Below are positions 1 to 7,272 of a stretch of 7,272 nt of DNA, one piece after another. The DNA is from Clostridiales bacterium. Its GTDB lineage: Bacteria > Bacillota_A > Clostridia > Peptostreptococcales > Anaerovoracaceae. The position numbers and the translations under genes are program-made. The stretch spans positions 1 through 7,272 of the forward strand of contig JAILFI010000076.1 in assembly GCA_024697655.1 (NCBI GenBank), given 5' to 3'. Under the pieces are notes generated by a model. That model worked only from the letters and a program-made list of their open reading frames with translations, searched no databases and was not told the origin of the DNA. The first letter of the stretch is position 1. Every line of letters begins with the position of its first letter.

Positions 1-1185
1 CCATGCCGCCAGCATCCGGCGGGCGATCTTGTCGTCGATCTCACGGGAGACATCGATGACGCCGTTGGCGAGTTCCGCGTGGTGGTCCTTGATGTACTGC
101 GCGCTCATCGCCTGCACCGCGAAGGACAGATCCATCATCTCTGCGGGATGGCCGTCCGCCGCAGCGATGTTGACCAGCTTACCCTCGCCGATGACATGGA
201 TGACCTTGCCCCACGGCATAACATACGCCGTGATGTTGCGGCGCGCTTCGTATTTTTCTATCGCGAGGTCCTCGAGTTCGTCCATCTCGACTTCTACGTT
301 GAAATGGCCGGCGTTGGTGAGGATCGCGCCATCTTTGAGCGATTCGAAATGACGCTTGTCGATGACATGGCTGCAGCCGGTGACCGTGATGAAGACATCG
401 CCGATCGCCGCAGCCTCCGCCATCGGCATGACATCATAGCCGTCCATGTGCGCTTCCATGGCCTTGACCGGATCGACTTCCGTGACGATGACCTGCGCGC
501 CGAGCGCTTTCGCTCTCATGGAAACGCCTCTGCCGCACCAGCCGTACCCGGCCACGACGACCTTCTTCCCTGCCACGATCAGATTGGTGTTGCGCATGAT
601 GCTGTCCCAGACGGACTGGCCGGTGCCGTAGCGGTTGTCGAACAGGTGCTTGCAATCCGCATCGTTGACCGCGACCATCGGGAACTTGAGGACACCCTCG
701 GCTTCCATCGCCTTCAGACGGATGATACCCGTCGTGGTCTCCTCGCAGCCGCCCCAGACATCTTCCGCCAGGTCCGGACGTTTGCCGTGCAGCATGCCCA
801 CGAGGTCACCGCCGTCGTCGATGACGATATTCGGCTTGTGCCCGAGGCACATCTCGATGTGCCGGTCGTACTCTTCCGGTGTTGCTGCGTGATACGCGAA
901 GACCGGGATCCCGTCATCCACGAGCGCCGCCGCAACGTCATCCTGCGTGGACAGCACATTGCTGCCGGTCGCGCGTAGATCTGCTCCGCCCGCAGCGAGC
1001 ACCTTGCACAGGTAAGCGGTCTTGGCCTCCATATGGATAGACAGGGAAATCTTCACACCTTCAAAAGGCCTGGTTTCCTCGAATTCTTTTTCGATCGCGT
1101 TCAGCAGGGGCATGTGCCGCCTGACCCAGTTGATCTTTTTGTGTCCCTCGTGCGCGAGAGCGATGTCGCGGACTTCGTATTCCAT
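1..1185 (-). CDS. ahcY: S-adenosylhomocysteine hydrolase (adenosylhomocysteinase), C-terminus cut by window edge
   Basis: Cytosolic NAD-dependent enzyme that reversibly splits S-adenosylhomocysteine, the by-product of SAM-dependent methylation, into adenosine and homocysteine. The frame is open for 395 codons and runs off the window without a stop. It lacks the internal insertion of the long eukaryotic-type enzymes, so it resembles the roughly 400-residue form and probably misses only about 10 residues. Visible motifs: SIHMEAKTA (residue 49 on, His51 matching the substrate-site His); SNVLSTQDDVAAAL (75-88); DDGGD (123-127); EETTTG (148-153); NDADCKHLFDN (174-184), with the catalytic Lys179 and Asp183; the Rossmann NAD loop GYGWCGRG (213-220); NAGHF (291-295); DGHPAEMMD (344-352). 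The start at 1185 is preferred over an in-frame ATG at 1191, because AAAGGA sits 6 bases before the former and directly abuts the latter. It follows glmS by 76 bases with no obvious promoter. Identification is secure. Confidence 0.96.
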   Translation of the reverse strand, partial: MEYEVRDIALAHEGHKKINWVRRHMPLLNAIEKEFEETRPFEGVKISLSIHMEAKTAYLCKVLAAGGADLRATGSNVLSTQDDVAAALVDDGIPVFAYHAATPEEYDRHIEMCLGHKPNIVIDDGGDLVGMLHGKRPDLAEDVWGGCEETTTGIIRLKAMEAEGVLKFPMVAVNDADCKHLFDNRYGTGQSVWDSIMRNTNLIVAGKKVVVAGYGWCGRGVSMRAKALGAQVIVTEVDPVKAMEAHMDGYDVMPMAEAAAIGDVFITVTGCSHVIDKRHFESLKDGAILTNAGHFNVEVEMDELEDLAIEKYEARRNITAYVMPWGKVIHVIGEGKLVNIAAADGHPAEMMDLSFAVQAMSAQYIKDHHAELANGVIDVSREIDDKIARRMLAAW

Positions 1186-1191
1186 ATACAT

Positions 1192-1261: not shown

Positions 1262-3091
1262 CTACTCGACCGTCACGGACTTGGCCAGATTCTTCGGCTT
1301 GTCGATGTTGCAGCCGCGCGCTTTCGCTACGTAATACGCAAAGAGCTGCATCGGCACGACCGACAGCAGCGGGGTCAGTTCATCCGGGCAATCCGGGATA
1401 TAGATGACCTCGTCCGCCTGCTTTTCGACTTCCTTGTCGTTCTCTTTAGCGACCGCCAGAACGTAAGCGCCTCTCGCCTGCACCTCCTTGATGTTGGAGA
1501 GCATCTTCTCGAACAGCGCGCTCTGCGTCGCCAGGACGACCACGAGTGTTCCCTGGTCGATCAGCGCGATGGTGCCGTGCTTGAGTTCGCCGGCTGCGAT
1601 CGCAAACGAGTTGATGTAAGAGATCTCCTTCATTTTGAGGGAGGCCTCATAGGAGACAGACGCGTCCAGGCCGCGGCCGATGAAGAACATTTCGTTCTCT
1701 CTGTGGAATCTGTCCGCGATCCGCTTGACCGCCTTCTGCCCCTTGAGATAGCGGGTGAGTTTTTCCGGAATCGCTTTCAGTTCCCCGATCATCTGCCGGT
1801 AATACGTCTCGTCGATCACCCCGCGCAGTTTGCCCATATACAGTCCCAGCATGTACATGATCGTCAGCTGGGTCGTGTACGCTTTCGTGCTGGCCACCGA
1901 GATCTCGGGACCCGCCCAGGTATAGATGACATCGTCGGATTCACGGGCGATGGAACTGCCGACCACGTTGACGACCGACAGCACACGGGCGCCTTTGCTC
2001 TTCGCTTCGCGCAGCGCATGCAGCGTATCCAGTGTTTCGCCGGACTGGCTGATCGCGATGAACAGCGTTTTGTCATCCACGAACGGGTCTCTGTAACGGA
2101 ACTCGCTGGCGATATCGACTTCGACCGGCAGTTTTGCCATCTTTTCGATCGCGAACTTGCCGATCAGACCGGCATGGTACGCCGTGCCGCAGGCGACGAT
2201 GCAGACCTTATTAATGCTGTCCAGGTCTTCCTTAGTGAGTTCGATGCCGTCCAGTTTGATGTTGCCGTCTTCGTCCAGCCGGCGCAGGAGCGTTTCTTCG
2301 ACGCCTTTGGGCTGCTCGTTGATCTCCTTGAGCATAAAGTGATCGTACCCGCCGCGCTTCGCCGAATCCACGTCCCACGTGACGGTGAATGCTTCGTGCT
2401 CGACCGGCTCGTTGTTCTCATCGAAGATCTCGATGCTGTCCGCTGTGACGACGATCGTTTCGTCGTTCTCGATGAAGTAGACCTGCCGCGAACGTTCCAT
2501 GATCGCAGGGATGTCCGATGCGATGTAGTTGCACCCTTCGCCGATGCCGGCGATGAGCGGTGCGTCTTTTCTGACCGCGACGATCTTGTCGGGCTCATTG
2601 GCGCAGATGACGCCGATCGCATATGCGCCGCGCATCTGCTCGACCGCTCTGTTGACCGCTTCGTGCAGATCACCGTCGTAGTAGATGCCGATCAGGTGCG
2701 CGATGACTTCGGTATCCGTGTCCGAGCGGAATTCCACCCCGTATTCACGGATCAGCTCCTCTTTGATCTCGACGTAGTTCTCGATGATTCCGTTGTGCAC
2801 GACCGCGATGGTGTTGTCCTCATTGGTGTGCGGATGCGCATTGATCTCGGAGGGGACGCCGTGCGTCGCCCAGCGCGTATGCCCGATGCCGACCGGACCG
2901 TCGAAAGCCGGATCCGCAACGATGCTCTCCAGATTTTTGATCTCGCCGACCGCCTTGCGTACTTCGATCTCTCCGTCTTTGCAAAGCGCGATGCCGGCCG
3001 AATCATAGCCCCTGTACTCCAGGCGCTTGAGTCCGTCGATGATCACTTCTTTTGCGTTATCTTTACCGATATAGCCTACAATACCGCACAT
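1262..3091 (-). CDS. glmS: Glutamine--fructose-6-phosphate aminotransferase (isomerizing)
   Basis: Cytosolic enzyme making glucosamine-6-phosphate from fructose-6-phosphate and glutamine, the entry step to UDP-GlcNAc and peptidoglycan. At 609 residues it is full length for the family. The N-terminal class II glutaminase domain (about 2-225) begins MCGIVGY with nucleophile Cys2, and shows HTRWATHG (71-78), HNGIIEN (99-105) and SDTDTE (123-128). Two SIS sugar-isomerase domains follow (about 290-425 and 455-590). They carry CGTAYHAG (301-308), SQSGETLDT (348-356), STKAYTTQ (401-408), LKMKEISYI (485-493, with Glu489) and GELKHG (501-506). The C-terminal tail DKPKNLAKSVTVE is the classic end that closes the active site. 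The start is fixed by the need for Cys2 and by GGAGG (3101-3105) with a 9-base spacer. Only 15 bases separate it from glmM, so it is co-transcribed with glmM. That gap leaves no room for a glmS ribozyme. Confidence 0.98.
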   Translation of the reverse strand: MCGIVGYIGKDNAKEVIIDGLKRLEYRGYDSAGIALCKDGEIEVRKAVGEIKNLESIVADPAFDGPVGIGHTRWATHGVPSEINAHPHTNEDNTIAVVHNGIIENYVEIKEELIREYGVEFRSDTDTEVIAHLIGIYYDGDLHEAVNRAVEQMRGAYAIGVICANEPDKIVAVRKDAPLIAGIGEGCNYIASDIPAIMERSRQVYFIENDETIVVTADSIEIFDENNEPVEHEAFTVTWDVDSAKRGGYDHFMLKEINEQPKGVEETLLRRLDEDGNIKLDGIELTKEDLDSINKVCIVACGTAYHAGLIGKFAIEKMAKLPVEVDIASEFRYRDPFVDDKTLFIAISQSGETLDTLHALREAKSKGARVLSVVNVVGSSIARESDDVIYTWAGPEISVASTKAYTTQLTIMYMLGLYMGKLRGVIDETYYRQMIGELKAIPEKLTRYLKGQKAVKRIADRFHRENEMFFIGRGLDASVSYEASLKMKEISYINSFAIAAGELKHGTIALIDQGTLVVVLATQSALFEKMLSNIKEVQARGAYVLAVAKENDKEVEKQADEVIYIPDCPDELTPLLSVVPMQLFAYYVAKARGCNIDKPKNLAKSVTVE

Positions 3092-3106: not shown

Positions 3107-4456
3107 TCAGCCGAATTTTCTGGTCAGCAGTTTCGCGAGATCCTCCGCCAGATCGGTGATCTGCTCCAGTTCCTCCCCTTCGATCATGACCCGCACGAGC
3201 GGTTCTGTGCCGGACGGGCGGATCAGAACGCGGCCGGAGCCTTCCATCTGCGTTTCCACTTCCCTGATCGCTGCCTGGATCTCTGTATCCGTCTGATATT
3301 TATTCTTGTTTTCGTTCTTTACTTTCGCGTTCTTCAGGACCTGCGGATAGATCGTGATGGCATCCGACAGTTCCGATGCCTTCTTCCCGGACTGCAGGAC
3401 TGCCTTCAGCAGCTGCAGAGATGACAGGATGCCGTCGCCGGTCGTCGTTTTGTCCAGGAAGATGATATGCCCGGACTGCTCACCGCCGATGATCCCGCCG
3501 GTCTTGAGCATGCTCTCGAGCACATACCGGTCGCCTACGCCGGTGACTTCGACCTTGCACCCGATGCTTTCCATGTACTTATGAAAACCGATGTTGCTCA
3601 TGACGGTCGCTGTGACCAGATCGTCCTTCAGACGGCCCTCCTCCTTAAGCATGGCAGCGCAGATGCAGATCACCTTGTCGCCGTCGATGATCCGGCCCTG
3701 TTCATCCACCGCAATGAGCCTGTCCGCGTCGCCGTCATAGGCCATGCCCATGAACGCACCTTCCCGGATGACCGCCTCGCAGAGACGTTCCGGGTGCGTG
3801 GACCCGCAGTTATCGTTGATATTGAGGCCATTCGGAGAATCGCCGATCACCACGACGTCCGCGCCGAGCGCTTCGTAGACCTTGCCGGCGATGTTGTAGG
3901 AAGCGCCGTTCGCGCAGTCCAGTACGAGTTTGACGCCGCGCAGATCCATCGGTGTCGAAGACACCAGAAAATCGATATATTTCTGGGTGGCATCCTCGTC
4001 GGCAATAATGTGCCGGCCGAGCTGATCGCCCGTGATGTACTTATTGACTTCGATGTTGCGGATGATGATGTCCTCGATCTCGTCTTCGACCGCATCATCC
4101 AGTTTGAATCCTTCCCCGTTGAAGAACTTGATGCCGTTGTACTCAAAAGGATTGTGGGAAGCGGAGATGACAACGCCCGCATCCGCCCGGTAATGCCGCA
4201 CGAGATACGCCACTGCCGGCGTCGGCATAACGCCGACCGTGATGACATCCGCACCGACTGCCAGGATCCCGGCAGACAGCGCGGACTCCAGCATATCTGC
4301 GGAGATACGCGTATCCGTCCCGATCAGGATCGTGGGGCGTCCCTTGCTCTTGCTCAGAACATGTGCGCCGGCTTTGCCCAGCTCAAATGCCAACTCCGGT
4401 GTCAGCTCGCTGTTCGCGACGCCTCTGACACCGTCTGTGCCAAACAGTCTGCTCAT
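3107..4456 (-). CDS. glmM: Phosphoglucosamine mutase
   Basis: Converts glucosamine-6-phosphate, made by the downstream glmS product, to glucosamine-1-phosphate for UDP-GlcNAc synthesis. It belongs to the alpha-D-phosphohexomutase family, and 449 residues is the usual length. Motifs in order: RLFGTDGVRG (3-12); the phosphoserine loop ISASHNP (97-103), with catalytic Ser100; the metal-binding loop DGDADR (241-246); the sugar-binding loop GGEQSGH (324-330); and the phosphate-binding loop RPSGTEP (413-419) in the C-terminal domain. These distinguish GlmM from broader phosphoglucomutases. The start at 4456 has GGAGG (4467-4471) with a 10-base spacer (or AGGAG with 8), embedded in the last codons of cdaR. 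The gap to cdaR is 5 bases, implying translational coupling. In other Bacillota, GlmM binds the cyclase CdaA and inhibits it. The cdaA-cdaR-glmM order here is the conserved one, so the same control is likely, though inferred. Confidence 0.98.
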   Translation of the reverse strand: MSRLFGTDGVRGVANSELTPELAFELGKAGAHVLSKSKGRPTILIGTDTRISADMLESALSAGILAVGADVITVGVMPTPAVAYLVRHYRADAGVVISASHNPFEYNGIKFFNGEGFKLDDAVEDEIEDIIIRNIEVNKYITGDQLGRHIIADEDATQKYIDFLVSSTPMDLRGVKLVLDCANGASYNIAGKVYEALGADVVVIGDSPNGLNINDNCGSTHPERLCEAVIREGAFMGMAYDGDADRLIAVDEQGRIIDGDKVICICAAMLKEEGRLKDDLVTATVMSNIGFHKYMESIGCKVEVTGVGDRYVLESMLKTGGIIGGEQSGHIIFLDKTTTGDGILSSLQLLKAVLQSGKKASELSDAITIYPQVLKNAKVKNENKNKYQTDTEIQAAIREVETQMEGSGRVLIRPSGTEPLVRVMIEGEELEQITDLAEDLAKLLTRKFG

Positions 4457-4461
4457 CTTTC

Positions 4462-5682
4462 TTACTCCTCCGTCGTGACTGCCTGCAGAATGATCTTGAT
4501 CTTCTGCGGCGCGATCACCACTTTATCCGCATCCAGGCTGCTGCTCTGGACGACTTCCACTTCGTGTTCCCCTTCTTCCAGATCCTTCGCCGACACGTGC
4601 AGCGTCAGATCTGATTTCTTCAGATTATCCAGGACATCCTTTTCTCCGCTGACCGTGACCTCTACAGATGCTGTCACGATCTCGGCGGCCAGGCCATCCG
4701 GCACATCCCGCACCTCGATCTCAGAAGAGGCGTACGTCCAGTTCTTCGTCACCGTCGACGCTCCCTTGATCTCGATGGTCGCTTCCAGAGGCTGCGGCTC
4801 CGTTACAGTCACCCCTTCCGGGAGGACCGGGGTAAGCGGAACGGTGCTGCTCTGCGTCATCCCCGTGATATCGACCGGCTCCGCTGCGACCTCTTTCAGA
4901 TCCTCAAGGACGGACGGCGGTCCGCTGACCGTCACTGTGGACGGGGCGCTGATCTGCCCCTGTTCGTATCCATCCGCCGGAGTGCCTGTTGTTTCGGCAG
5001 TGAACGGAACCGTCTTCGAACCGACGATAGCCGCCGTGACCTGCACCTCGGAGGACGCCAGTTTGACGCGGCTGACCTGCCCGCCGTTTGCGTCCACCGG
5101 GACCGCATTCTTAGTCAGACGGGTCGTCTTCTCGGTAAGTTCCGCAACGTTGACGGTAACAGCCAGATGATCGATCGACTTGACTGTCGATGCCGCGCCG
5201 GTGACAGCGATCGTCTCAGGTGTAACAGTCACATTGCCGGCGCTTTGAGAGACTTCAAACGCCCCTTCAAAATCGACCTGCACATCGATGTCTTTCGTGA
5301 CCAGATCATCGATCACCACCGTGACATCATCGATACTTGCTTTCTGAAGTTCAACAGTATTCGGGATCCTGATATCCAAAGGCACCTCATGCGTCCCCTT
5401 CGTCAGCCCCGAAACATCCGCCACAACGCTGACCTTGTCACTGCTCGCCAGCAGTTTCCGGACATCGGAGCGGTCCCCCTTGATCGTCAGGTCGACCGTC
5501 ACTTCACCCGTGTCTACAAGCGCAAGACCGTTCTCAGTCAGCGATTCTTCGCCGGCAAATACGACAGGCACGTCAACAAGACGCCCGGTCGTTGCCGGAT
5601 CCACCTGTCCGACGACATAGATCCACAGCAGCAGCGAAGCGATGAAAGCGATGACCGCGTTGACTTTGTTGTTCCTCAACAT
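4462..5682 (-). CDS. cdaR: CdaR, membrane-anchored YbbR-domain regulator of diadenylate cyclase
   Basis: A 406-residue protein with a short basic N-terminus, one hydrophobic segment (about residues 8-25, rich in A, I, L and V), and a long beta-rich domain predicted to lie outside the membrane. That part divides into four YbbR-like repeats of 80-90 residues, roughly 34-126, 130-219, 223-305 and 314-402. Recurrent patterns are D-V-P / E-V-P-L at repeat starts, VTVSG-type strands (such as 250-254 and 342-346) and terminal strands like TVVIDD and ATIEIKG. CdaR proteins bind CdaA and modulate c-di-AMP output, possibly in response to envelope state. No enzymatic motif is visible. The start at 5682 overlaps the cdaA stop by one base (TGATG), with GGAGG (5691-5695) 8 bases upstream. 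The repeats are too divergent for exact boundaries by eye. The family assignment rests on architecture plus position between cdaA and glmM. Confidence 0.93.
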   Translation of the reverse strand: MLRNNKVNAVIAFIASLLLWIYVVGQVDPATTGRLVDVPVVFAGEESLTENGLALVDTGEVTVDLTIKGDRSDVRKLLASSDKVSVVADVSGLTKGTHEVPLDIRIPNTVELQKASIDDVTVVIDDLVTKDIDVQVDFEGAFEVSQSAGNVTVTPETIAVTGAASTVKSIDHLAVTVNVAELTEKTTRLTKNAVPVDANGGQVSRVKLASSEVQVTAAIVGSKTVPFTAETTGTPADGYEQGQISAPSTVTVSGPPSVLEDLKEVAAEPVDITGMTQSSTVPLTPVLPEGVTVTEPQPLEATIEIKGASTVTKNWTYASSEIEVRDVPDGLAAEIVTASVEVTVSGEKDVLDNLKKSDLTLHVSAKDLEEGEHEVEVVQSSSLDADKVVIAPQKIKIILQAVTTEE

Positions 5683-6518
5683 CAGTCATCCCTCCCGTTC
5701 CGTTTGAACAGCGCCTTGACGAGGCTGCCTTCGCTCTGGGTGTCCTGCAGGTACAGCGCGAGCAGCCGTTTCTCCAGCGTCTTGCCGTCCAGATACCGTT
5801 CGATCACCCCGTCTTCGACCAGCGTGATGATCCCGGTCTCTTCGGAGACAACAAGGACCAGACAATCCGACTTTTCACTGATGCCGATCCCGGCGCGGTG
5901 GCGGGTGCCCAGGCTCTTGGGGATCTCCATGTTGTCCGTCAGCGGCAGCACGCAGCCTGCTGCGTAAAGCTTTGTCCCGCGGACGATCATCGCGCCGTCA
6001 TGCAGCGGCGATCCTTTGTAGAAGATGTTCTCGATCATCTGCGCGGAAACATCCGCATCGATGACCGTGCCGGTCTCGACGATGTCCGACAGATTGGTGT
6101 CGCGTTCGAACACGATGAGGGCGCCGGTCCGGTCCGCTGCCATCTCTTCGGCGGCAACGATGAACTCGGCGACCACATCTTTTGCTTTTTCTTTATCCAG
6201 CGGGTCCACTTTGATCTTGAACAAAGAGCCGCGTCCCATCCGCTCCAGCGCCCGTCTCAATTCGGGCTGGAACAGGATGATCAGCGCCAGTACACCGACC
6301 GCCAGCGTGCCCTTCATGATGAAGTTGAGGACATGCAGCTGCAGGATATCCGACAAAAAGGCAACAGCAAGAAGGACCAGCACGCCCTTGAGCAGCTGCT
6401 CCGCCCTGCTGTCTCTGATGAATCCCAGTACCTTATAGAAGATATAGGCAACGATCAGGATATCCAGTATGTCTGTGATCGCTATACCGGCGAGAAGGTT
6501 CTCCGTTAACTGATGCAT
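5682..6518 (-). CDS. cdaA: Diadenylate cyclase CdaA (DisA_N/DAC domain, membrane-bound)
   Basis: Makes cyclic di-AMP from two ATP at the membrane. c-di-AMP is the second messenger controlling potassium, osmolyte and cell-wall balance in Gram-positive bacteria. The 278-residue protein has three N-terminal hydrophobic segments (about 13-31, 42-58 and 70-84). The cytosolic DAC domain follows, starting near the conserved FQPELRRALE (83-92). It contains the two family hallmarks, DGA (174-176, within SPLHDGAMIV) and GTRHR (204-208), followed by AGIGISE and VVSEETG. The length and three-helix layout match CdaA (YbbP/DacA) rather than DisA or CdaS. The start at 6518 is preceded by GGGAGGG (6522-6528). 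It lies 15 bases after hpf and overlaps cdaR by one base, so CdaA and CdaR are probably made in step. All catalytic motif residues are intact. Confidence 0.98.
   Translation of the reverse strand: MHQLTENLLAGIAITDILDILIVAYIFYKVLGFIRDSRAEQLLKGVLVLLAVAFLSDILQLHVLNFIMKGTLAVGVLALIILFQPELRRALERMGRGSLFKIKVDPLDKEKAKDVVAEFIVAAEEMAADRTGALIVFERDTNLSDIVETGTVIDADVSAQMIENIFYKGSPLHDGAMIVRGTKLYAAGCVLPLTDNMEIPKSLGTRHRAGIGISEKSDCLVLVVSEETGIITLVEDGVIERYLDGKTLEKRLLALYLQDTQSEGSLVKALFKRNGRDD
5690..5696 (-). promoter_or_regulatory. Shine-Dalgarno of cdaR inside the end of cdaA
   Basis: The minus strand reads GGGAGGG within the last codons of cdaA, about 8 bases before the cdaR ATG. The ATG shares its A with the cdaA stop (TGATG). 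This arrangement is typical of translational coupling. Confidence 0.7.
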
Positions 6519-6533
6519 GGACCCTCCCGCTTA

Positions 6534-7058
6534 TCAGTAGGTGGTTTCGAGAAGACCGTAGTCCTTCTCGTTTCTCTTATAAACAACGTTAACGCTGTCG
6601 GTTTCCACATTGAGGAACACGTAGAAGTTGTGCTCCAGCATTTCCATCTGCAGGACCGCCTCGTCGACCGTCATCGGTGTAAGCTCGAATTTCTTGTTCC
6701 TGGTGACTGCGATCTCTTCGGTTTCCTCCGGCTCCGGCACCTGGCCCAGATCGATCATCTTGTTGTCCTTGTGCTTTTTCTGGAGCTTTCCCTTGAAACG
6801 GGACATCTGGCTGGACAGCTTCGCAACGACGTTGTCGATGCCGTCGTAGAACTCTTCGGCTCTGTCTTCTGCACGGAAGATCATCCCGCGCGCTTTGATG
6901 GTGACTTCTGTCTTTTTATATTTTTTCTCCTCCGTCAGCATGACGTCGGCATCGATATCGTCAGAAAAATATTTTCCAAGTTTCTGTACTTTCTTTTCGA
7001 TCGTATCTTTCAGATGGTCACTGACTCTGCAGTTCTTACCTGTGATGTTCACTCTCAT
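6534..7058 (-). CDS. hpf: Ribosome hibernation promoting factor, long form (HPF/RaiA/YvyD)
   Basis: Binds the 30S decoding site and joins two 70S ribosomes into inactive 100S dimers during stationary phase or stress. The 174-residue length is that of the long form. The N-terminal S30AE domain (about 1-97) begins MRVNITGKN and holds the expected basic patches, with EEKKYKKTEVTIKARG around 43-58. An acidic, charged linker (about 104-117) follows. The C-terminal dimerisation domain (about 121-172) shows KKFELTPMTVDEAVLQMEML and VNVVYKR. The C-terminal half is diagnostic for long HPF and absent from short Hpf or YfiA. The start at 7058 has a perfect AAGGAGGT 6 bases upstream, the strongest ribosome binding site in the window. 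hpf is the first gene of the visible operon, 15 bases ahead of cdaA. Upstream lies a GC-rich structured leader. Confidence 0.97.
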   Translation of the reverse strand: MRVNITGKNCRVSDHLKDTIEKKVQKLGKYFSDDIDADVMLTEEKKYKKTEVTIKARGMIFRAEDRAEEFYDGIDNVVAKLSSQMSRFKGKLQKKHKDNKMIDLGQVPEPEETEEIAVTRNKKFELTPMTVDEAVLQMEMLEHNFYVFLNVETDSVNVVYKRNEKDYGLLETTY

Positions 7059-7064
7059 AATGCG

Positions 7065-7072
7065 ACCTCCTT
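7065..7072 (-). promoter_or_regulatory. Consensus Shine-Dalgarno of hpf
   Basis: The minus strand carries AAGGAGGT with a 6-base spacer to the hpf ATG, fully complementary to the anti-Shine-Dalgarno. It directly abuts the 3' arm of a small hairpin (7072-7094), sharing one base with it, so its accessibility could depend on folding of the leader. Confidence 0.85.
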
Positions 7073-7094
7073 ATTGCCCTTCATTGGTGCAATA
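7072..7094 (-). promoter_or_regulatory. Small leader hairpin abutting the hpf ribosome binding site
   Basis: The minus strand pairs TATTGC with GCAATA (6 bp). The pairing continues past a bulged A with two more C-G pairs, enclosing an AATGAA hexaloop. The 3' arm ends at the first base of the hpf Shine-Dalgarno. The helix is AU-rich and only moderately stable. It could stack near the ribosome binding site or tune its access, but it could also be chance. Confidence 0.35.
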
Positions 7095-7124
7095 GCAACT
7101 AATAAGCATTAACTGTCTATACAA

Positions 7125-7272
7125 CAGCCGTCTGGCTGACCTGGTCTTTGCCCCCACACTTGCCTTGACCCGGGTTTCCCGGAGGACTTACTTCTAAACT
7201 GCGCCATGATCACCGCGGCCTCTTGCTCGCGGCTTACGTGGGACCTTTCGCCCGCAGCTGGCATGGCCTTGC
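7125..7272 (-). ncRNA. Structured leader RNA upstream of hpf, candidate raiA-motif RNA (5' end beyond window)
   Basis: This stretch precedes hpf on the same strand, shows no convincing coding frame, and is GC-rich with purine-rich single-stranded linkers. Visible minus-strand helices are: CAGCC/GGCTG around an AGAC loop (7125-7138); CCGGG/CCCGG around AAA (7170-7182); CCGCG/CGCGG (7213-7232); and a long-range GCCATG (7267-7262) with CATGGC (7208-7203) that encloses the previous one. CTGCG (7257-7253) can alternatively pair with CGCAG (7203-7199). The conserved-looking linkers GCGAAAGG, AGAAGTAAG and GCAAAGACC resemble junctions of a compact folded RNA. The raiA motif is a known class of structured non-coding RNA in Bacillota and Actinomycetota, usually located just upstream of raiA/hpf. 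Position and form fit, but I matched it from context rather than by alignment. Alternatives are an unclassified hpf leader or the end of another RNA gene. The RNA's 3' boundary near 7120 is an estimate. Confidence 0.6.

What the first reader, a model, noticed from the sequence alone, without database searches (positions are those of the whole stretch)
7125..7272. Structured non-coding RNA upstream of hpf, candidate raiA-motif RNA
About 150 GC-rich bases ahead of hpf on its strand carry several nested and long-range helices with purine-rich linkers and no credible protein. hpf is the raiA gene, and the raiA motif is a large structured RNA class defined by this location. Its biochemical role is still poorly understood, although disruption in a clostridial host has been reported to affect sporulation and aggregation. 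If confirmed, this is a raiA RNA leading an operon that also encodes c-di-AMP synthesis and the first steps of wall-precursor synthesis. That context may hint at function.
Basis: partly seen in the sequence, partly recalled or inferred. Interest (0 to 1): 0.75.

Follow-up and report, generated by a model that had tools for sequence, protein, structure and literature searches.

The report
raiA RNA before hpf, c-di-AMP operon
The stretch is most of a real raiA RNA, a known large structured bacterial RNA of unknown biochemical role, and close relatives of it occur in genomes in which the sporulation and c-di-GMP genes so far tied to this RNA could not be found.

Summary
Window 7127-7272 (minus strand) matches Rfam raiA (RF03072) at 100.7 bits, E 2.1e-24, although the window edge cuts off the first 19 model positions. 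In the closest relative (hpf 97% identical) the complete RNA scores 135.8 bits. It is the short-P6 'variant 1' form. Cryo-EM pairings P1a, P3a and pk-1 covary in 56 distinct sequences. Thermodynamic folding alone is not above chance.

Context: comFC (seen in L001) - raiA RNA - hpf - cdaA - cdaR - glmM - glmS; hpf-cdaA-cdaR follows in 23 of 27 variant-1 loci with enough sequence.

Added here:
(1) Ten RNA-bearing genomes (nine without G008, probably mis-binned) show neither Spo0A nor GGDEF, nor EAL above cut-off, nor SpoIVA. Sporulation and c-di-GMP are therefore unlikely to be the core function there.
(2) In variant-1 loci P1 usually continues past the Rfam model (29 of 34; permuted maximum 8), with a U-tail in 9 of 34, and the RNA often lies close to comFC. 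This suggests release from an operon transcript by P1-dependent termination or cleavage (inference).

A new member of a known class in an informative setting.

The parts
7127..7272 (-). raiA RNA (RF03072), variant 1 (short P6); first 19 model positions (5' strand of P1) lie beyond the window end
   Evidence: 100.7 bits, E 2.1e-24, model 20-209; complete homologue in L001 7275-7439, 135.8 bits
7253..7259 (-). pk-1 5' half (P3 loop, AGCUGCG), pairs with 7197-7203 (CGCAGUU)
   Evidence: all 7 pairs formed in the window; 382 of 391 cells paired across 56 distinct rows, 67 double-change cells (shuffle mean 20.4, 0 of 500 reach it); coordinates checked
7197..7203 (-). pk-1 3' half
7242..7268 (-). 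P3 stem (P3a 7266-7268 with 7242-7244; P3b), carrying the pk-1 loop
   Evidence: P3a 168 of 168 cells paired, 20 double-change cells (shuffle mean 5.2, 0 of 500)
7238..7241 (-). P4 5' strand (CCAC), pairs with 7154-7157 (GUGG)
   Evidence: 56 of 56 distinct rows paired, one compensatory A-U to G-C change
7163..7185 (-). short P6 hairpin in place of the P6-P7-P8 domain
   Evidence: alignment (43 model positions replaced by 2 nt); inner stem 106 of 108 cells paired in 36 variant-1 rows; the outer hairpin is not supported by covariation
7127..7146 (-). 3' strand of P1 (partner outside the window)
   Evidence: P1a 446 of 490 cells paired, 209 double-change cells (shuffle mean 56.4, 0 of 500), from homologues
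7119..7126 (-). probable 3' strand of the P1 extension (UGUUGUAU), identical to that of L001, where it pairs 8 bp with the 5' flank
   Evidence: the 5' partner in the window's own genome is not visible
6534..7058 (-). hpf (raiA gene), long hibernation promoting factor, 174 aa
   Evidence: Ribosomal_S30AE and Ribosom_S30AE_C over cut-off
5682..6518 (-). cdaA, diadenylate cyclase
   Evidence: DAC, CdaA_N
4462..5682 (-). cdaR (YbbR domains)
3107..4456 (-). glmM
   Evidence: PGM_PMM domains I-IV; gene name inferred from domains and context
1262..3091 (-). glmS
   Evidence: SIS (two stretches) and glutamine amidotransferase domains; gene name inferred from domains and context

Best explanation
A raiA (ModT) RNA of the compact variant 1. 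It folds into a pseudoknotted core closed by P1 and works in trans as a free, stable RNA, probably with proteins, that helps set the passage from growth to stationary phase. It is not a riboswitch for hpf. In the window's kin the RNA lies in the chain recD2-comFC-[raiA RNA]-hpf-cdaA-cdaR-glmM-glmS. Its closing helix is prolonged beyond the Rfam P1, by 8 bp in L001 and by up to 18 bp in others. I infer that this long stem frees the RNA from longer transcripts: by intrinsic termination where a U-tract follows, and by double-strand cleavage (RNase III type) or use as a read-through leader where none does, as in the window. SHOWN: identity, structure, covariation, the P1 extension in homologues, gene order. 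FROM PAPERS: trans action, abundance, growth-phase role (other species). INFERRED: release mechanism and function in this organism. Identity alone I put at 0.98, a trans-acting growth-transition role at 0.65, release through the long P1 at 0.4.
For: Covariance-model match. Covariation in P1a, P3a and pk-1 and one compensatory change in P4. P1 extension: 29 of 34 variant-1 loci against a permuted mean of 2.4 and maximum of 8 in 2000; U-tail 9 of 34 against a mean of 0.55, maximum 3. comFC stop within 60 nt of the RNA in 23 of 34 loci with same-strand comFC, overlapping in 3 (frames checked). No promoter- or terminator-like site between RNA and hpf in window or L001. Against cis control of hpf: the distance from RNA to the hpf match varies from 28 to 3854 nt, another ORF lies between in L009, hpf is not beside the RNA in G011, and in G164 it is on the other strand. 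Trans-complementation and abundance: PMC11706538.
Against: No transcript data for any of these organisms. 11 of 19 loci embedded close to comFC have a TATAAT-like box in the last 45 nt before the RNA (0 of 500 shuffles as many), so an own promoter is possible even there, although full promoter-like pairs are not clearly above chance (6 of 19; 62 of 500 shuffles). The 19 were picked by hand from 23: G049, G054, G060 and G065, all variant 2, were counted with the others, all of which had promoter-like sites, so 10 of the 23 have one. The P1 extension is not general: 3 of 19 variant-2 loci and 4 of 21 new class-level loci (permuted mean 0.6, maximum 4). In the window the 5' strand of P1 is not visible. 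No protein or ligand partner is known to me.
Confidence: 0.6

Rival explanations
1. Cis-acting leader: the RNA is the 5' untranslated region of the hpf-cdaA-glmS operon and controls it, for example through P1 acting as a terminator that gates read-through.
For: Same strand, 68 nt before hpf, no terminator or promoter found between them in the window and L001; P1 extended and followed by a U-tail in 9 of 34 variant-1 loci; hpf-cdaA-cdaR downstream in 23 of 27 variant-1 loci.
Against: Variable distance, an intervening ORF in L009, hpf elsewhere in G011 and inverted in G164; a promoter-like TTGTAT-17/18-TATAAT before hpf in close relatives G002, G003, G004, G006, G007 and G043; trans complementation in two clostridia (PMC11706538).
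Confidence: 0.15
2. The RNA acts chiefly by lowering c-di-GMP and so promoting sporulation, as reported for C. difficile.
For: Deletion raises c-di-GMP and lowers sporulation there (PMC11706538, abstract and discussion).
Against: In 70 genomes, 56 with the RNA: 28 of 56 have no Spo0A_C, 14 of 56 no GGDEF, 10 of 56 neither (G008 among the ten is probably mis-binned, leaving 9). Those 10 have no EAL over cut-off (1 weak match) and no SpoIVA. RNA and Spo0A are not associated (Fisher p 1.0), and the 14 RNA-less genomes all have a GGDEF match, two of them weak (G058 4.1e-5, G069 2.2e-4).
Confidence: 0.1
3. Chance GC-rich sequence or a short protein, not a structured RNA.
For: Folding energy of the window part is no better than shuffles; a 51-codon frame is open.
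Against: Significant model match, covariation; the frame is not conserved.
Confidence: 0.01

Closest known systems
raiA motif RNA / ModT (Rfam RF03072), C. acetobutylicum and C. difficile
   Same: Rfam match; P3, P4, pk-1, pk-2 in the window and P1 in homologues; comFC upstream (in L001) and hpf (raiA) downstream
   Different: No P7/P8; P1 prolonged beyond the Rfam model in kin; RNA between comFC and an hpf-cdaA-cdaR-glmM-glmS cluster; nearest genome without detected Spo0A or GGDEF; no separate terminator found in the window
raiA 'variant 1' (short P6 stem-loop; 32% of sequences according to PMC11751092, section read)
   Same: Short P6 hairpin in place of the P6-P7-P8 domain
   Different: Nothing found that sets it apart, except the P1 extension, not mentioned in the passages I read
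Riboswitch with terminator (works-like comparison only)
   Same: Structured RNA ahead of an operon; in some kin the closing helix plus U-tract looks like a terminator
   Different: Distance and neighbour gene vary; six close kin have a promoter-like site for hpf; class reported to act in trans elsewhere

Membership tests
raiA motif RNA (RF03072) | Covariance-model match over gathering score (101.3 bits) | tested here: inconclusive
   Window 100.7 bits with 19 positions cut off, E 2.1e-24; complete homologues: 9 of 11 loci over the score, 123.1-139.7 bits. Read together, membership is certain in practice.
raiA motif RNA (RF03072) | pk-1 (7 bp) between P3 loop and pk-loop | tested here: met
   7 of 7 pairs in the window; covariation across 56 distinct rows
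raiA motif RNA (RF03072) | pk-2 (2 bp) | tested here: met
   both pairs in the window, 107 of 112 cells; hardly varies and one slid control is as good (95%), so no covariation support
raiA motif RNA (RF03072) | P1 closing helix | tested here: inconclusive
   5' strand outside the window; met in homologues (P1a 446/490, P1b 165/165, P1c 270/275)
raiA motif RNA (RF03072) | P6-P8 domain or short P6 (variant 2 or 1) | tested here: met
   Variant 1: alignments; definition read in PMC11751092
raiA motif RNA (RF03072) | comFC upstream and/or raiA (hpf) gene downstream (typical, not required) | tested here: met
   hpf 7058-6534; comFC in L001 6418-7197; the window ends before any comFC
raiA motif RNA (RF03072) | Abundant, stable discrete transcript acting in trans | not testable with these tools
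   Known to me for clostridia only, from PMC11706538
cis-regulatory riboswitch | Conserved tie to one downstream gene at short distance | tested here: not met
   varying distance, intervening ORF, cdaA instead of hpf in G011, inverted hpf in G164

The most novel reading that the evidence does not exclude
In the window's kin the raiA RNA has become an operon-embedded RNA whose prolonged P1 is at once the closing helix of the core, the strand that holds the -35-like box of hpf in some close kin, and the signal (terminator or RNase III-type stem) that frees it from comFC-hpf-cdaA transcripts. Its core role is then coupled to ribosome hibernation and c-di-AMP/wall-precursor supply rather than to sporulation or c-di-GMP, whose genes are not found in the nearest hosts.
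Probability: 0.25. Interest if true: 0.6.

Novelty: new member of a known kind. Interest (0 to 1): 0.35.

Why it matters
The raiA RNA is a widespread large bacterial RNA with a solved structure and no known biochemical function. Genomes that keep it without detectable Spo0A, SpoIVA, GGDEF or EAL narrow the search: the core activity is unlikely to depend on sporulation or c-di-GMP. The compact form (about 165 nt in L001) is a natural small version for ligand, protein and ribozyme assays. The prolonged P1 and the closeness to comFC give a testable idea of how the RNA is made where no promoter or terminator of its own is obvious.

Tried and rejected
Plain thermodynamic folding as evidence: rejected, not above shuffles. 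sroD match at 1208-1253 (18.8 bits, gathering score 50): chance. P4 and the P6 hairpin were first counted one column out of register (50% and 49% paired); P4 was recounted (56 of 56); the P6 hairpin in its right register pairs only in part of the rows, as it aligns raggedly, so beyond its inner stem it has no covariation support. The idea that the P1 extension belongs to variant 1 as such: doubtful, since G025, G026 and G039, variant 2 with the same gene neighbourhood, have it too; I take it to follow descent, but built no tree. A promoter for hpf in the window: none found (for L001); the hexamer scan before hpf was near chance overall (29 of 39 against 24.3 in shuffles), so only the TTGTAT-TATAAT pairs of six close relatives weigh with me. 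An association of the RNA with Spo0A or GGDEF in 70 genomes: none in the expected direction. A literature link of raiA with cdaA and c-di-AMP: no paper in the open-access library holds all three terms; raiA with comFC and noncoding RNA gives two papers; three of cdaA, hpf, ribosome hibernation, c-di-AMP gives three papers that I judged unrelated from the listing. Soares et al. 2024 and Weinberg et al. 2017 are not held, so I do not claim that the P1 extension is absent from print.

Dropped rows: L012 (23% match) was not scanned with Rfam. G008 was left out of flank and order counts because its RNA repeats that of G001 and its contig looks mis-binned; it is still among the 70 genomes. G015 and G034 fell out of the P1-extension count for short flanks. 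G003 has a run of N inside P6 and was put with variant 1 by its kinship. In one search, 4 of the 23 loci close to comFC (G049, G054, G060, G065) were counted with the variant-2 group, not the embedded group.

Full report
OBSERVATION. The window was compared with all of Rfam 15 on both strands. It gave one significant match: raiA RNA, RF03072, 7272 to 7127 on the minus strand, 100.7 bits, E 2.1e-24, model positions 20-209, cut off at the 5' end by the window border. Rfam's gathering score is 101.3, so the truncated piece misses it by 0.6 bits. No whole genome is held for the window, so I used relatives of hpf. One search gave 12 loci; L012, a distant 23% match from Haemophilus, was left out. 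Of the 11 scanned, 9 (L001-L009) have a complete raiA RNA at 123.1-139.7 bits. In L001, an 'uncultured Clostridiales' MAG (isolate RUG13615) with hpf 97% identical, it lies at 7275-7439 (135.8 bits), 61 nt before hpf. At genome level 10 of 11 have the RNA, as do 48 of 61 (G001 and relatives) and 26 of 148 genomes drawn from its class (both larger searches used stricter filters that lose weak matches). None of 14 control genomes rings in these three searches.

IS IT MORE THAN CHANCE. Folding energy alone is not: z +0.42 for the window part, -1.47 for the L001 RNA with 8 bases on each side. Covariation is. I aligned 57 RNAs (window plus 56 loci; 56 distinct rows) and counted the pairs of the cryo-EM structure described in PMC11751092 (section read); the mapping onto positions is mine. 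P1a: 446 of 490 cells paired, 209 with changes on both sides (shuffle mean 56.4; 0 of 500 reach it). P3a: 168 of 168, 20 double changes (5.2; 0 of 500). pk-1: 382 of 391, 67 double changes (20.4; 0 of 500). P1b 165 of 165 and P1c 270 of 275, few changes. P3b and pk-2 hardly vary, so say nothing (all). P4 in the correct register: 56 of 56, one compensatory change (the first count was one column off). Shuffles do not keep kinship; slid controls, which do, reach at most 67% of cells for P1, P3 and pk-1, but 95% for pk-2. In the window P3a, P3b, pk-1 and pk-2 all form. A minus-strand frame of 51 codons is open in the window, but 28 of 56 relatives lack its ATG and only 8 of 56 have ATG plus 45 or more open codons. 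comFC reads into the RNA in three relatives in three different frames.

WHAT KIND OF raiA RNA. In the window and in six of the nine relatives (L001, L002, L004, L005, L007, L008) 42-43 model positions are replaced by 1-3 nt; in L006 and L009 by 9 and 19 nt; L003 has a run of N there. The P7/P8 part is thus missing and P6 is a short hairpin. PMC11751092 calls this variant 1 (32% of sequences), against variant 2 with P6-P8 (68%). The compact form is therefore known.

SURROUNDINGS. Pfam confirms hpf (both S30AE domains), CdaA, CdaR/YbbR, GlmM-type and GlmS-type enzymes, then S-adenosylhomocysteine hydrolase; from hpf to glmS the genes are 15 nt or less apart or overlap by one base. Upstream in L001 are RecD2 and ComFC-type genes. 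Of 45 loci with at least 5.5 kb downstream, 27 have hpf-cdaA-cdaR in this order (24 of them with glmM, 16 with glmS as well), among variant-1 loci 23 of 27 (detection by tblastn with window proteins, so distant homologues may be missed). comFC (74%) and raiA (66%) as usual neighbours are in print (PMC11706538, introduction; also PMC11477304, passages); for the cdaA link I found no paper. In G011 the RNA stands directly before cdaA and hpf is on another contig; in L009 an esterase-like ORF (named by eye) separates RNA and hpf; in G164 hpf is inverted. The link to hpf is not obligatory.

A LONG P1. Bases just outside the Rfam boundaries pair with each other. With a simple no-gap score (pair +1, mismatch -2), 29 of 34 variant-1 loci reach 6 or more, against a mean of 2.4 and a maximum of 8 when flanks of different loci are paired at random (2000 permutations); 9 of 34 also have a U-tail at the helix end (mean 0.55, maximum 3). 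Among 19 variant-2 loci only 3 do (mean 0.32, maximum 3), namely G025, G026 and G039, which share the window's gene neighbourhood. In 21 further class-level loci 4 do (mean 0.60, maximum 4), one of them the only evident variant-1 RNA among them, G164 (164 nt, 14 bp, cdaA cluster). So it looks like a property of a group of relatives; no tree was built. In L001 the extension is AUAUGGCA/UGUUGUAU; G002, G006 and G043 keep it with one-sided changes and, at one pair in G006 and G043, a two-sided change. The window has the identical 3' strand at 7119-7126. G018, G027 and G036 end in a perfect or nearly perfect helix followed at once by seven T, which looks like an intrinsic terminator whose 'loop' is the whole RNA; a scan limited to loops of 3-8, as, cannot see such a thing.

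PROMOTERS. Before the RNA, promoter-like sites were found in 36 of 36 variant-2 loci (shuffle mean 21.0), in 17 of 20 variant-1 loci not close to comFC (7.0), but in 6 of 19 loci within 60 nt of comFC (3.5; 62 of 500 shuffles reach it). Those 19 were chosen by hand from 23; the other four are variant 2 and are among the 36, so 10 of 23 have a site. A TATAAT-like box alone is enriched in the 19 (11 of 19, 0 of 500), so own promoters are not excluded. Between RNA and hpf, six close relatives (G002, G003, G004, G006, G007, G043) have TTGTAT-17/18-TATAAT; in G002, G006, G043 and G007 the TTGTAT lies within the P1 extension, in G003 partly, in G004 not. The window and L001 have the TTGTAT but no matching -10. 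In the window, then, read-through from RNA to hpf is the simpler guess, not shown.

HOSTS WITHOUT DETECTED SPORULATION OR c-di-GMP GENES. In 70 genomes (61 plus 9 more), 56 have the RNA. Of these 28 lack Spo0A_C, 14 lack GGDEF and 10 lack both: G001-G004, G008, G009, G021, G025, G049, G060 (table). G008 is labelled Bacteroidales, has no hpf domain hit and carries an RNA identical to that of G001, so its RNA contig is probably mis-binned; without it, 9 of 55. The 10 have no EAL over cut-off (one weak match in G004) and no SpoIVA. Spo0A_C was counted over cut-off (a weak match in G006 was not counted); some counted matches lie in frames of only about 120-185 aa. The RNA is not associated with Spo0A (Fisher p 1.0); the 14 genomes without it all have GGDEF matches (p 0.057, opposite to a dependence), weak in G058 and G069. 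Completeness is not told for these genomes, and those whose titles I saw are mostly MAGs, so single absences are soft; G021 has its RNA on a 1.54 Mb contig of a 1.9 Mb genome. This extends the remark in PMC11706538 that the RNA occurs in non-spore-formers, and questions c-di-GMP as the general output.

MECHANISM. Papers (PMC11706538: abstract, introduction, three results sections, first of two parts of the discussion, and passages; PMC11751092: one section and passages; PMC12286853 and PMC11477304: passages) describe an abundant, stable, trans-acting RNA, monomeric in vitro, affecting the growth transition, with first evidence for protein association. I take the window's RNA to be the same machine in its compact form. 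The special step proposed here, release from operon transcripts through the long P1, rests and is inference.

VERDICT. Identity practically certain; class known; setting and hosts informative. New member of a known kind, interest 0.35.

Noticed in passing
window 7072-7094 (-); L001 7468-7487: A small hairpin (TATTGC...GCAATA in the window, TATTGTTT...AAACAATA in L001) ends just before the AGGAGG of hpf; its sequence differs but the pairing is kept. Not seen by eye in the other gaps printed, apart from G008, which repeats L001, so it may be chance.
   Followed up: partly
G017, G040, G024 (loci L059, L091, L060), 5' end of the raiA RNA: The comFC reading frame runs into the raiA RNA and stops inside it, in three different frames; in G017 the stop is the UGA of the conserved GGUUGA. 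A translated 5' strand of P1 could couple ComFC translation and RNA folding.
   Followed up: partly
L008 (G008), record RUG528: Record labelled 'uncultured Bacteroidales' carries a comFC-raiA RNA piece nearly identical to L001, with a partial hpf match and no cdaA found; probably a mis-binned or chimeric contig.
   Followed up: no
window 4462-5682 (-): cdaR is only 67% identical to that of L001 while hpf is 97%, cdaA 91%, glmM 93% and glmS 92%: the YbbR-domain protein differs unusually fast in this pair.
   Followed up: no
G110 (L115), G165 (L114): raiA RNA matches of 339 and 348 nt, some 130 nt longer than the Rfam model of 209 positions; not examined.
   Followed up: no
window 1-1191 (-): S-adenosylhomocysteine hydrolase follows glmS, after 70 nt in the window and 94 nt in L001.
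   Followed up: no
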